59,739 bases of DNA from the NCBI GenBank assembly GCA_947174415.1, contig CAMWIW010000009.1:1-59739 (forward strand), read 5' to 3'. How positions within the stretch are numbered: position 1 is the first letter of the stretch; each line of letters opens with the position of its first letter. This DNA is from an uncultured Clostridia bacterium. Its GTDB lineage: Bacteria > Bacillota > Clostridia > Christensenellales > Borkfalkiaceae. The translations under genes and the position numbers were made by a program. The notes below the pieces were generated by a model. The model did not search any database. It saw nothing but the letters and a program-made list of their open reading frames with translations, and had not been told where the DNA came from. Positions 10,998-13,729 of the stretch are shown one piece after another.

Positions 10998-11270
10998 ATG
11001 CACAACAAAATGTCTGCCACGGGAGTTTTGGCATACTTAATTTACATATTGGAAATGAACTTGACAGAGCTGATTTCCGCCGAGCATAAAAACGAATACA
11101 TTTTGGGCAGTTGGGAAGCTTGCATAGAATGTCTTGAAATTATCGGCTGTTGGACGCGTGCGAAAGATTACGGTTTGAATTACAACCCCGAAATTAAATA
11201 TGAATTATTTAATCGGGAAACGGCGAGGTGTTTTTGCTCACCAACAAAAACACCTCGCCGCCAAAAATAA
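10998..11270 (+). CDS. small hypothetical protein, reads through a hairpin
   Basis: A 90-residue frame with a strong RBS (AAGGAG, 8 nt before the ATG) and a possible extended -10 TGATATAGT at 10939-10947. The protein is Cys- and Trp-containing (SWEACIECLEIIGCW), has no signal peptide, and I do not recognise it. It is divergent from the XRE regulator, an arrangement repeated at 39.8-40.4 kb with a different small protein. Its last 17 codons (RCFCSPTKTPRRQK) are encoded by the perfect hairpin at 11221-11260, which suggests that the natural C-terminus has been replaced or frameshifted by that hairpin. Confidence 0.6.
   Translation: MHNKMSATGVLAYLIYILEMNLTELISAEHKNEYILGSWEACIECLEIIGCWTRAKDYGLNYNPEIKYELFNRETARCFCSPTKTPRRQK
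11221..11260. terminator. long perfect hairpin between convergent genes
   Basis: A 16-bp perfect stem (CGGCGAGGTGTTTTTG and its complement) around an 8-nt loop. On the minus strand it follows the kinase stop by 15 nt and is followed by TTTCCCG, so it is likely the kinase terminator. It also lies inside the last codons of the plus-strand small gene. Confidence 0.65.
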
Positions 11271-11274
11271 AACT

Positions 11275-12741
11275 TTACACGTTATCTAAAACAATGAGTT
11301 CAACGGTAACACCCTTGCGTGCGGCGCAGGTTGCAACTACGCTTTCACGACAAGTGCGCACGAAAACCGAGCGCCGCCCATCGAAGGCAATTTCTATAAA
11401 CTTTGTAAATCCCAAACACTGCGGAGCTTCGTCAAGCGTAAAACTTGCTCCGTACTTTTCCAAAATTTCAAAAACCGTAAAAAGTCCTATACCGTTTCCG
11501 CCGACGCCCGCGCGGGTAGTAACTTGCTCCAAGCCAAGTTTTTCAAGCACTTTTTCGTCGAACTGTTCACCGCTGTCGTAAATGCATATAAGCGGCTTTT
11601 GGTTTTCCGTTGCACCAAGCTCCACTCGCACTTTTGCATTTGGTGAGCCAAGGGCGGAAATCATGGCGTTATCGCATAGATAGCTAAGCAGAATATGTAT
11701 ATCGTCTTTATCTAAATTGCTTTCGGTAAACCAACCTTCAACGTTTGTGGAAATATTTGCGCTTACGTTAACGTTTTTTCGTTCCGCCGCAGTAAACAAC
11801 TGAATTATAGGAACGTCGATTAACCTCACGCCAGTTTGCGGAATATTTTGCAAACTGCTCTTTTCATTTGTAACGTTCAGTTCGCGCATAATACTTTGCA
11901 ACATATCCCGAACGGCGCACGCGTCCGCGCAACCTGTTTGTTCTGCGGCGCGTTCCGCAAGGAGGGCGCAATCGGGCACGGCTTTATTCAGATAGTGCAA
12001 AAGTTTAGCGCACAAGGCAACTTGTAAATCATTTTCGACAGAGCTTAATTTATACTCCTCTATTGTATCTTCCATACGGTTGACGGTTTGTTGTTTTACC
12101 GCCTCGCGGTAATTGTAGGTAATATGCCTCCTCCACCATAAAATTAGCAACAGACCGAATAGCGCAATGATAAGCAGAACTGTTTCATATATAGAGTAGG
12201 TTACATTTTTTGTATATACAATCATTAATGTAAAAATACAGCCTACACTGAAAAATAACAGAATTTCAAATGTTGCAGTTTCACCTTTCGGGTTAACACC
12301 GCTTTGCAGTCTTTTAATTTTAAATAGAAGAAATACAAAAGCAATTTGAATTATGCTAACGATTAATTGCGCAATAATTGTTCTGACAGCTTCTACTTCT
12401 ATTAGGTACAATGCCGGTGCTATAAAAAAGCCTACAAGAAAAGATGGCAACATTAAAACTATTGATATGCCAAGCGCAATAGTACCTACCGTAACCGTTT
12501 CGTAAAAAGTTTTTCTAAACAGCAAAAACAAAAATGCAACACTGAATAAAAGGAAACCTATCGGCACAAGTATTTTCACGTATACCGTTACGAAATATAA
12601 GACTGCGGATAAAGCTATAAACAGCGGAATATCCAACAAATCCCAAGCTTTTAACTTTATACGCAGCAGTTTGCTATAAGCGTATAAAATGCATATAAAT
12701 ATGCAGGTGTATTTGATCAAACAGATAATAAATTCATTCAT
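11275..12741 (-). CDS. GHKL sensor histidine kinase (AgrC-like)
   Basis: A 488-residue membrane kinase. Residues 1 to about 210 make six or seven hydrophobic segments with no large extracellular domain, as in peptide-sensing AgrC-type kinases. A helical linker follows, then a GHKL ATPase: N-box around LLSYLCDNAMISA, G1 at IYDSGEQFD, and G2 at AGVGGNGIGLFTVFEILEKYG. The phospho-acceptor motif of AgrC (RHD) is not seen; a His in the helix AKLLHYLNKAVPD is the only candidate. A C-terminal tail of about 35 residues extends past the ATPase. TATAAT lies 6 nt before the ATG with no RBS (leaderless candidate). It is next to the tiny gene at 12842 and the Spo0A-like regulator at 12947, and I infer a sensor-regulator pair. 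Confidence 0.88.
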   Translation of the reverse strand: MNEFIICLIKYTCIFICILYAYSKLLRIKLKAWDLLDIPLFIALSAVLYFVTVYVKILVPIGFLLFSVAFLFLLFRKTFYETVTVGTIALGISIVLMLPSFLVGFFIAPALYLIEVEAVRTIIAQLIVSIIQIAFVFLLFKIKRLQSGVNPKGETATFEILLFFSVGCIFTLMIVYTKNVTYSIYETVLLIIALFGLLLILWWRRHITYNYREAVKQQTVNRMEDTIEEYKLSSVENDLQVALCAKLLHYLNKAVPDCALLAERAAEQTGCADACAVRDMLQSIMRELNVTNEKSSLQNIPQTGVRLIDVPIIQLFTAAERKNVNVSANISTNVEGWFTESNLDKDDIHILLSYLCDNAMISALGSPNAKVRVELGATENQKPLICIYDSGEQFDEKVLEKLGLEQVTTRAGVGGNGIGLFTVFEILEKYGASFTLDEAPQCLGFTKFIEIAFDGRRSVFVRTCRESVVATCAARKGVTVELIVLDNV

Positions 12742-12743
12742 AA

Positions 12744-12772
12744 TTGAATTATAACACAATATTAGTTAAAAT
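12744..12772 (+). promoter_or_regulatory. promoter of the Trp-rich peptide gene
   Basis: TTGAAT (12744-12749), a 17-nt spacer, and TAAAAT (12767-12772). It overlaps the minus-strand -10 box of the kinase (12748-12753), so the two divergent transcripts should interfere or be co-regulated. The leader to the peptide gene would be about 60 nt. Confidence 0.55.
12748..12753 (-). promoter_or_regulatory. -10 box of the kinase gene
   Basis: TATAAT on the minus strand, separated from the kinase ATG by TCAATT only. No clear -35 box is seen. The layout predicts a leaderless mRNA. Confidence 0.55.
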
Positions 12773-12841
12773 TCGATAAAACCTCCTAAAATTTAACAGG
12801 CGTTCTTTTTTTACACTTTAAAGAAAAGGAGGGCGCTACAT

Positions 12842-12901
12842 ATGTTTTGGAGTTTTCTTAAAAACGTTTGGCACTGGTACTTAACTTTATGGAGCTATTA
12901 A
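12842..12901 (+). CDS. 19-residue Trp-rich peptide in a two-component locus
   Basis: A short frame encodes MFWSFLKNVWHWYLTLWSY and stops at TAA. It is preceded by AAAAGGAGGGCGCTACAT, one of the best Shine-Dalgarno sequences in the window, has a plausible promoter at 12744-12772, and is followed 10 nt later by an intrinsic terminator. The peptide is very hydrophobic with four Trp, two Phe and two Tyr, and one Lys. It has no Cys, so it is not a classic AgrD thiolactone precursor, and no leader/protease site is evident. It sits between an AgrC-like kinase and a Spo0A-like response regulator, both on the opposite strand. Possible roles are a signal peptide sensed by the kinase, a small membrane partner of the kinase, or a toxin-like peptide. 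It is too short to judge by coding statistics; the flanking signals carry the call. Confidence 0.6.
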   Translation: MFWSFLKNVWHWYLTLWSY

Positions 12902-12911
12902 TCTCTAAACA

Positions 12912-12943
12912 AAAAGCGGGTTGCAAAATTGCAACCCGCTTTT
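12912..12943. terminator. intrinsic terminator after peptide gene and regulator
   Basis: AAAAGCGGGTTGCAA pairs with TTGCAACCCGCTTTT, flanked by A and T runs on both sides. It can end the peptide transcript (plus) and the response regulator transcript (minus). Confidence 0.9.
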
Positions 12944-12946
12944 ACT

Positions 12947-13729
12947 TTATTTATTAAAGTGGCTTAACAGTTTTTGTTTGTAGAAAAAGACAAACTCGTT
13001 AGTGGTCGGCACGTATTTATCTTTACGCAACGGAGCGGTATAATGCTTTTGTAAGTTATTTATATCCGCGTTGTTCCAAGTATTGTTTATCGCGTACTGC
13101 ATTGCGTGAGTAACGCCGTTTTCGCTTTTTCCAATCTTCGCACCTATTATTTTGCCCCAGTTCTGATTTTCACCGTTTGCAGCCAAAATAACTGCGTCAA
13201 CTAAGTAATTATATCCGATATTTTTTACGCTTACGCCTAACTTATTGAACTCGGATTGAATAAAGTCGCACATTTGGTTTTCTAATCGAAATCCTGAAGT
13301 CGGTGCTGGCGGTTCTTCTTCGTAACCCAAAATTTCGGGCATAACTCTAAGCAGCAGTTCAATCACCATTTTGGGAGAATAACCTTTTTGCCATTTTGCA
13401 AATTCGTAATCCGCTCCCAATCTCTTTGCGCTGTTACGGGTAATTTTACTCGGGCTGTTTGTGTTAACTACAATGTACGGCTTAGGGCAAATAATCATGG
13501 AGTTCAGCTTTTCTAAAAGGTCCAAGCCGTCGCCGATTCCGCCCTGAAGCTCCAAATCCAATATTATCGCGTGCACGGTATGGTTGCGGATATAGGCGAG
13601 CGCGTCGTTTGAAGAAGTAAACACTTCTGCAAGGCAAAGCTTATCCTCGTTTGCTTTAACCTCTGCAACCAAGGCCTTGCTGTCGTTTGCGTCGTCTTCA
13701 ACAATAAGTACGTTAAGTTTATTTGTCAT
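12947..13729 (-). CDS. response regulator with Spo0A-like DNA-binding domain
   Basis: A 260-residue response regulator. The receiver domain (1 to about 130) shows LIVEDD with Asp12/Asp13, the phospho-acceptor Asp58 in IILDLEL, and a Lys near 114. The C-terminal part (about 150-260) matches the Spo0A effector domain: a GYNYLVDAVILAAN helix, then GVTHAMQYAINNTW corresponding to the Spo0A recognition region (VERAIRHAIEVAW), and VPTTNEFVF corresponding to KPTNSEFIA. The stretch between these helices is shorter than in Spo0A of Bacillus. It is therefore a paralogue or derivative rather than the sporulation master regulator itself, whose usual neighbour spoIVB is not here. GGAG precedes the ATG. 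It is likely the partner of the GHKL kinase. Confidence 0.85.
   Translation of the reverse strand: MTNKLNVLIVEDDANDSKALVAEVKANEDKLCLAEVFTSSNDALAYIRNHTVHAIILDLELQGGIGDGLDLLEKLNSMIICPKPYIVVNTNSPSKITRNSAKRLGADYEFAKWQKGYSPKMVIELLLRVMPEILGYEEEPPAPTSGFRLENQMCDFIQSEFNKLGVSVKNIGYNYLVDAVILAANGENQNWGKIIGAKIGKSENGVTHAMQYAINNTWNNADINNLQKHYTAPLRKDKYVPTTNEFVFFYKQKLLSHFNK

What the first reader, a model, noticed from the sequence alone, without database searches (positions are those of the whole stretch)
11275..13729. AgrC-like kinase, tiny Trp-rich peptide and Spo0A-like regulator as one signalling locus
Seen: a GHKL kinase with a polytopic sensor, a 19-codon gene (MFWSFLKNVWHWYLTLWSY) with consensus-like promoter, AAAAGGAGG RBS and its own terminator, and a response regulator with a Spo0A-type effector domain, all within 2.5 kb. 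The peptide and kinase promoters overlap head to head. Known: AgrC kinases sense secreted peptides, but their partners use LytTR regulators and AgrB/AgrD; here there is no AgrB and the regulator is Spo0A-like. Inference: a new type of peptide-linked two-component system, with the peptide as signal or as membrane modulator of the kinase.
Basis: partly seen in the sequence, partly recalled or inferred. Interest (0 to 1): 0.82.

Follow-up and report, generated by a model that had tools for sequence, protein, structure and literature searches.

The report
Tiny helical peptide with a sensor-kinase switch
Some Clostridia carry a gene for a 12-21-residue, tryptophan-rich helical peptide beside a membrane sensor kinase, usually with a Spo0A-like regulator as well, which looks like an undescribed and unusually simple way for bacteria to sense a peptide.

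Summary
The 19-codon Trp-rich ORF (+12842-12901) lies between a Spo0A_C-type response regulator and a polytopic GHKL-type kinase. A comparable ORF with a ribosome site occurs at the kinase in 73 of 79 script-testable loci, about 2.4 expected by chance; two of the six misses have a Trp-less peptide there. It is antisense to the kinase in the window's genus, sense in a class-level genus, and stays with the kinase in both genomes checked where the regulator is elsewhere. Over 61 peptides the pattern is an amphipathic helix (moment 0.57 vs 0.26 shuffled), so the product is a protein. Antisense-type promoters carry direct repeats phased at 10/20/30 bp and 0A-box-like cores, pointing to the regulator controlling its own peptide. 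AgrB was not found in the window's genome; no exporter recurs nearby. Best reading: leaderless peptide to kinase to Spo0A-paralogous regulator to peptide promoter, an autoinducing loop. Ligand binding, export and sign are inferred. Distribution is patchy. I judge it a new variant of peptide-sensing two-component systems; the open-access searches made here found no description.

The parts
12842..12901 (+). 19-codon peptide gene, MFWSFLKNVWHWYLTLWSY
   Evidence: Read; comparable ORF at 73 of 79 script-testable kinase loci; 13 close orthologues all open, K7 and W12 invariant
12824..12833 (+). Ribosome-binding site AAAAGGAGGG of the peptide
   Evidence: comparable sites in the upstream regions printed
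12812..12817 (+). Likely -10 (TACACT) of the peptide promoter; no good -35
   Evidence: TACACT, TATACT or TATATT in close relatives, TATAAT in several more distant ones; by eye
12769..12798 (+). Candidate regulator-binding block: two boxes (TTCGATA 12772-12778, TTTAACA 12792-12798) 20 bp apart, between the two divergent promoters
   Evidence: Only match in G000 at up to 3 mismatches; 0A-like core enriched; repeats at 10/20/30 bp over antisense-type peptide promoters
12912..12943 (+). Intrinsic terminator of the peptide gene, near-symmetric, so probably also of the regulator
   Evidence: similar hairpins in several relatives, by eye
11275..12741 (-). Polytopic GHKL-type histidine kinase; H249/N252 H-box, N358 N-box, glycine-rich box
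   Evidence: hydrophobic segments
12748..12753 (-). -10 (TATAAT, extended: TGTTATAAT) of the kinase, 6 nt from its ATG: predicted leaderless mRNA
   Evidence: Sequence, same spacing in close relatives looked at; by eye, inference
12947..13729 (-). Response regulator, receiver (D58) + Spo0A_C effector domain, paralogue of Spo0A
10998..11270 (+). Small conserved protein (about 70 aa conserved) convergent with the kinase; link to the system unknown
   Evidence: Related ORF in 6 of 29 flanks compared, the window included

Best explanation
A self-contained peptide-sensing two-component switch. The peptide gene makes a leaderless, probably N-formylated 12-21-residue amphipathic helix that sits at or crosses the membrane. 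The membrane part of the kinase (about seven hydrophobic segments) reads it. The kinase phosphorylates the adjacent Spo0A-paralogous regulator, which binds helically phased 0A-like boxes between the divergent promoters and switches the peptide (and probably the kinase) promoter, closing an autoregulatory, most likely autoinducing, loop. Shown: the triad, its conservation on either strand, the peptide-kinase linkage, the helix periodicity, the phased repeats in antisense-type promoters, no AgrB match in the window's genome. Inferred: peptide binding to the kinase, kinase-regulator pairing (from gene order), DNA binding, export, positive sign, quorum-type use.
For: 73 of 79 script-testable loci have the ORF, about 2.4 expected; first set 35 of 38 against 0.53 expected; the same ORF rule on 28 further loci of a class-level genus 26, control 0 hits. 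The peptide is present at both regulator-less kinases examined, G023 and G007, and absent at 7 regulator loci lacking this kinase. 38 hits antisense, 34 sense, 1 both. Amphipathic helix, z 17.9 on 61 peptides, z 6.0-8.6 in three groups separately. Repeats at lags 10, 20, 30 in 34 antisense-type promoters; TTCGACA-like core in 18 of 30 against 3.9 in shuffles, 0 of 30 in the other orientation. AgrB over cut-off in 0 of the 16 same-genus carriers searched, 3 of all 25. Regulator in 25 of 29 flanks, upstream and adjacent in 67 of 79 loci, Spo0A_C in 17 of 17 scanned.
Against: No biochemical evidence. No exporter or peptidase recurs at the locus. Peptide divergence does not track sensor divergence beyond chance in the one set tested (n=9, partial r 0.11, p 0.29). 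L096, L109, L145 and L179 have a kinase without a recognisable peptide. The 0A-like count includes 12 close orthologues, so it is not 30 independent cases. Sense-type loci show no 10-bp phasing of ACAA words. The system is patchy: 9 of 396 genomes of the order, 10 of 391 of the class, 1 of 398 (the window's own) of a phylum-wide sample.
Confidence: 0.6

Rival explanations
1. The peptide is not exported but is an in-cis membrane modulator: it inserts beside the kinase and sets its activity, as small membrane proteins such as MgrB or SafA do for PhoQ (recalled), making a homeostatic loop rather than cell-cell signalling.
For: No recurring exporter in the flanks, no AgrB in G000; strong amphipathicity; peptide follows kinase, not regulator.
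Against: Short leaderless peptides can also be released: SIP of S. pyogenes is 8 aa, leaderless and secreted (PMC6565748, abstract and passages). Nothing here separates the two.
Confidence: 0.22
2. The peptide is the output, a membrane-active effector like phenol-soluble modulins or a leaderless bacteriocin, driven by the regulator, and the kinase senses something else.
For: Amphipathic, Trp-rich, own promoter and terminator, regulator-type boxes upstream. Delta-toxin is likewise encoded divergently from agr (recalled).
Against: An output should follow its regulator, but the peptide stays with the kinase in the 2 genomes examined where the regulator is elsewhere and was not seen at 7 regulator loci without this kinase, within the flanks held. 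At 12-21 aa the products are short for such effectors (recalled).
Confidence: 0.1
3. A Trp-codon leader/attenuator: short Trp-rich frame followed by a terminator, as in trp operon leaders.
For: Short Trp-rich frame plus terminator; in the class-level genus it precedes the kinase in the same direction.
Against: In the window the next genes beyond the terminator (regulator, tRNA, GDSL protein) run the other way; two peptides in place have no Trp (L092, L170); amphipathic periodicity is not explained.
Confidence: 0.02
4. Chance short frame in a conserved promoter region, or a non-coding RNA.
For: At 19 codons a single instance could be chance; pN/pS is only moderately below 1 (0.81).
Against: 73 of 79 against about 2.4 expected; helix periodicity in each of three separate groups.
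Confidence: 0.02

Closest known systems
Agr (AgrBDCA)
   Same: Polytopic GHKL-type kinase, small peptide gene beside it, regulator controlling the peptide promoter (Agr details recalled)
   Different: No AgrB match in G000; no AgrD-like precursor seen; 8 of 61 peptides have a Cys, so no general thiolactone; Spo0A_C instead of LytTR
ComCDE/Blp pheromone systems
   Same: Amphipathic peptide, polytopic kinase, autoinduction (recalled; the ComD paper PMC4873836 was seen in a search listing only)
   Different: No double-glycine leader (12-21 aa in all), no ABC exporter recurring at a fixed place in the flanks, regulator not LytTR
Leaderless SIP/RopB and SHP/Rgg
   Same: Tiny leaderless or short hydrophobic peptide as signal, positive feedback (SIP: PMC6565748, abstract and passages; SHP recalled)
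   Different: Receptor there is a cytosolic regulator; here a membrane kinase
Spo0A
   Same: Receiver + Spo0A_C domain; best solved-structure match of the family profile is the Spo0A DNA-binding domain 1lq1; 0A-like boxes
   Different: Separate clade (split support 1.0); scores 54.5 of 200 bits while a true Spo0A exists in the same genome

Membership tests
Agr quorum sensing | AgrB peptidase | tested here: not met
   0 matches in G000 (95.65% complete); over cut-off in 3 of 25 carriers searched, none of the window's genus; those 3 lie on other contigs than the kinase
Agr quorum sensing | LytTR regulator | tested here: not met
   17 of 17 regulators scanned match Spo0A_C; LytTR is not among the 7 families listed
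Agr quorum sensing | GHKL-type kinase with polytopic sensor | tested here: met
   HATPase_c in 31 and HATPase_c_5 in 19 of 32 members at E 0.01; seven hydrophobic segments in the window kinase, 4-7 in others by simple hydropathy
Agr quorum sensing | Cyclic peptide from an AgrD-type precursor | tested here: not met
   12-21 aa products without leader; Cys in 8 of 61
ComCDE-type pheromone system | Double-glycine leader and dedicated exporter | tested here: not met
   Peptide sequences; among the 18 largest groups of flank ORFs only the kinase and regulator recur widely in one arrangement; one 9-locus group includes an ABC ATPase (L075) at varied distances and is absent from the window
Spo0A (TIGR02875) | Curated score of 200 bits | tested here: not met
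   54.5 bits, 55.5
Spo0A_C-domain response regulators | Receiver with Asp plus Spo0A_C domain | tested here: met
Peptide-sensing two-component systems | Peptide binds and switches the kinase | not testable with these tools

The most novel reading that the evidence does not exclude
An undescribed class of 'minimal' peptide signalling, scattered over several lineages of Clostridia: the translated peptide itself, without leader, processing enzyme or dedicated exporter, is the ligand of a GHKL-type membrane kinase that acts through a regulator branch split off from Spo0A, with ligand-receptor pairs diversifying between species and between paralogues in one genome.
Probability: 0.5. Interest if true: 0.9.

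Novelty: new variant of a known kind. Interest (0 to 1): 0.8.

Why it matters
Known Gram-positive peptide systems mostly need a precursor, an exporter or peptidase and a receptor (recalled); this one would need only the receptor pair and a gene of about 60 bp, short enough to be missed by routine annotation. It would also show that the Spo0A DNA-binding fold was recruited for peptide sensing apart from sporulation. The peptides are short enough to synthesise, so the idea is cheap to test, and it would give little-studied Clostridia a readable set of signal-receptor pairs.

Tried and rejected
Attenuator reading: rejected for the antisense arrangement. Peptide as regulator output: disfavoured. 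Chance ORF: rejected by the controls. Agr-type processing: no AgrB in G000. Mobile-element origin: with one regulator (L097) as query, matches in plasmids and phages are distant (5 and 11 records, all under 60% identity; the three annotated plasmid ones are named Spo0A); a viral-contig scan with the regulator alignment found no relative, the kinase could not be scanned there. Coevolution test inconclusive. Regulon search: only one full-length copy of the block in G000; shorter half-sites were not searched.

Criteria changes: in the class-level genus I first read sense peptides by eye in five loci, and the rule, whose Shine-Dalgarno list was set after that, found them in six. One search then used that ORF rule on 28 loci: 30 were held of 39 matches, two were already known, and one (L152) is the contig-end locus already seen as L112. 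For the Lachnospiraceae-family set the rule gave 8 of 15 (which also re-tried L145, a miss). By eye I then saw peptides missed because they overlapped the regulator's 3' end or had a longer SD spacing, so widened the region by 60 bp and the SD window, recomputed the control, and gave 13 of 15. One of these 13 (L180, beside a tandem distant kinase) may be chance. L087 and L033 were not testable by script but carry peptides by eye. For the moment test I chose the start codon by eye for L113 and L147.

Full report
WHAT IS THERE. On the minus strand lie a response regulator (12947-13729) and, downstream, a kinase (11275-12741); in the 205-bp gap, on the plus strand, lies a 19-codon frame, MFWSFLKNVWHWYLTLWSY (12842-12901), with AAAAGGAGGG and a terminator-like hairpin at 12912-12943. 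The regulator is Response_reg + Spo0A_C; the kinase has a HATPase_c domain over cut-off and a weaker GHKL-domain match, with invariant H249, N252, N358 and glycine-rich box over 20 homologues, and seven hydrophobic segments before it by simple hydropathy (4-7 in the other members). A tRNA-Gln lies upstream of the regulator.

IS THE PEPTIDE REAL. A search of the window's genome and 60 relatives gave nine full-length kinase homologues (G000, G004, G036, G009, G020 twice, G019, G023, G007) and seven weak partial matches that I did not examine. The nine all have such a frame: divergent from the kinase, or for G009, whose kinase is on another contig, beside the regulator. Genus-wide, 16 of 93 genomes hold the kinase. 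A scan of named genomes gave 28 loci, MAG or uncultured records titled Clostridia, Clostridiales, Christensenella, Ruminococcus or Lachnospiraceae; many are the same contigs as those above. Counting W-containing frames of 11-22 aa with a Shine-Dalgarno site, 35 of 38 loci, six of them class-level, have one in the gap; the rest of the same loci (15 hits in 604,920 strand-bases) predicts 0.53 in total. In a class-level genus (39 of 77 genomes carry the kinase) the peptide is on the sense strand: 26 of 28 further loci have it by the same ORF rule, control 0 hits in 104,800 strand-bases. In the family of the Lachnospiraceae MAG L097, 15 of 299 genomes carry the kinase. With one widened rule over all sets: 28 of 31, 32 of 33 and 13 of 15, together 73 of 79; expected 0.71 + 0.48 + 1.22. 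Of 82 loci listed, three could not be tested by the script. The 73 hits comprise 71 distinct peptides, 38 antisense, 34 sense and one locus with both. Misses: L092 and L170 have a Trp-less peptide in place (MIAFLIEFLQRYFYEI, MSDLIDFIISIINPKTKG); L096, L109, L145 and L179 have none that I recognise. Loci are not independent: several are close relatives.

HOW WIDE. The kinase (E 1e-30) was found in 9 of 396 genomes of the order (5 of 142 genera), 10 of 391 of the class (3 of 222 genera) and only in the window's own genome among 398 sampled over the phylum. It is patchy.

PROTEIN-LEVEL SELECTION. Across 13 close orthologues the frame is open in all, K7 and W12 are invariant, the C-terminal half varies more, pN/pS 0.81. 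Over 61 peptides the mean hydrophobic moment at 100 degrees is 0.57 against 0.26 after shuffling (z 17.9), and an angle scan peaks at 105 degrees; the window clade (13), the other antisense loci (18) and the Lachnospiraceae-family set (13) each show it alone, z 7.7, 8.6 and 6.0. So the product is most likely an amphipathic alpha helix, rich in Trp (18.7% of residues after the first), with no leader.

WHICH PARTNER. In G023 and G007 the kinase has the peptide but no regulator of this family beside it, while seven regulator loci without this kinase (G014, G029, G015, G002, G032, G023:C2, G007:C31) show no such peptide in the flanks held, some of which are cut by contig ends (one unrelated W-containing ORF turned up in the G015 locus). 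The peptide therefore belongs with the kinase. The regulator is in 25 of 29 flanks compared (L079, L086, L088 and L095 are the others, L079 and L095 being cut by contig ends) and directly upstream of the kinase in 67 of 79 loci; in L174 it lies downstream.

HOW IT MAY BE CONTROLLED. Upstream of the peptide's -10 the close relatives share a block whose only match in G000, at up to 3 mismatches, is this one. TTCGACA, the complement of the 0A-box core TGTCGAA (core taken from PMC3485338, passages), occurs within one mismatch in 18 of 30 antisense-type promoters against 3.9 in shuffles (exact: 5 against 0.1), and in 0 of 30 in the other orientation (shuffles 2.3); 12 of the 30 are one close clade. 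Over 34 thinned antisense-type promoters (L175, with a long run of 10-bp repeats, left out) self-similarity is raised by more than 3 sd only at lags 10, 20 and 30 bp (z 3.2, 4.3, 3.1; lags 6-33 tested). The Spo0A DNA-binding domain binds tandem boxes 10 bp apart (recalled); the best solved relative of the regulator family's effector domain is that domain, 1lq1 (the window protein alone found nothing at E 1e-4). The boxes lie near the -35 positions of both divergent promoters, so I infer joint activation. Sense-type loci show other words (ACCAT/ACCGT 13 against 4.1) and no ACAA phasing.

NOT AGR, NOT SPO0A. AgrB is over cut-off in 3 of 25 carriers searched, all in the class-level genus; none of the 16 genomes of the window's genus passes (one weak hit under cut-off in G079). 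These are draft genomes, so single absences are weak. In the flanks no exporter recurs in a fixed place: among the 18 largest groups of related ORFs shown, one of 9 loci includes an ABC ATPase (L075) at varied distances, and the window is not in it. Regulators of this kind and Spo0A form two sides of a split with support 1.0 (41 and 17 sequences, two labels at locus L037/L125 being swapped and sorted by position). G000 has its own Spo0A at C4:50171-50920, 231 bits. [quoted passage not shown]

MECHANISM. Most likely: peptide at the membrane switches the kinase; the phosphorylated regulator drives peptide and kinase promoters. Shown are linkage, coding, periodicity and promoter repeats; ligand action, kinase-regulator pairing, DNA binding, export and sign are inferred. 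In-cis membrane modulation is the main rival and nothing here excludes it. A test of whether peptide and sensor diverge together was not significant (n=9).

PRIOR WORK. Searches (open-access papers only; two returned no paper; for the others the listings were read, and three papers in all were opened for passages) gave no description of this triad; subscription papers and preprints were not searched. NCBIfam has no family for the two peptides long enough to scan, and Pfam none for the window peptide.

Noticed in passing
window 12739-12760 (-): The kinase -10 (extended, TGTTATAAT) ends 6 nt before its ATG with no Shine-Dalgarno site, and the close relatives looked at keep this spacing: probably a leaderless kinase mRNA.
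   Followed up: partly
window 10998-11270: Small protein without Pfam match, conserved over about 70 aa and convergent with the kinase in five close relatives; its tail runs into a hairpin.
   Followed up: partly
L037:3406-5140: In G023 the Spo0A-like regulator that has no kinase beside it lies next to the canonical Spo0A, on opposite strands.
   Followed up: no
L006, L009, L011, L012: Regulator homologues without this kinase lie beside a conserved 216-217-aa protein (MSFFSNFQSDKCPGAISG...), function not looked up.
   Followed up: no
L096, L179/L180: Tandem kinases of this family without a clear peptide gene; perhaps heteromeric sensors that lost or moved the peptide.
   Followed up: no
L175 upstream of the peptide: About ten near head-to-tail 10-bp repeats of an ACAAAAATCC type in one peptide promoter, a good substrate for a footprint.
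   Followed up: partly
G020 and G096: Two paralogous peptide-kinase pairs in one genome with different peptides, useful for testing specificity.
   Followed up: no
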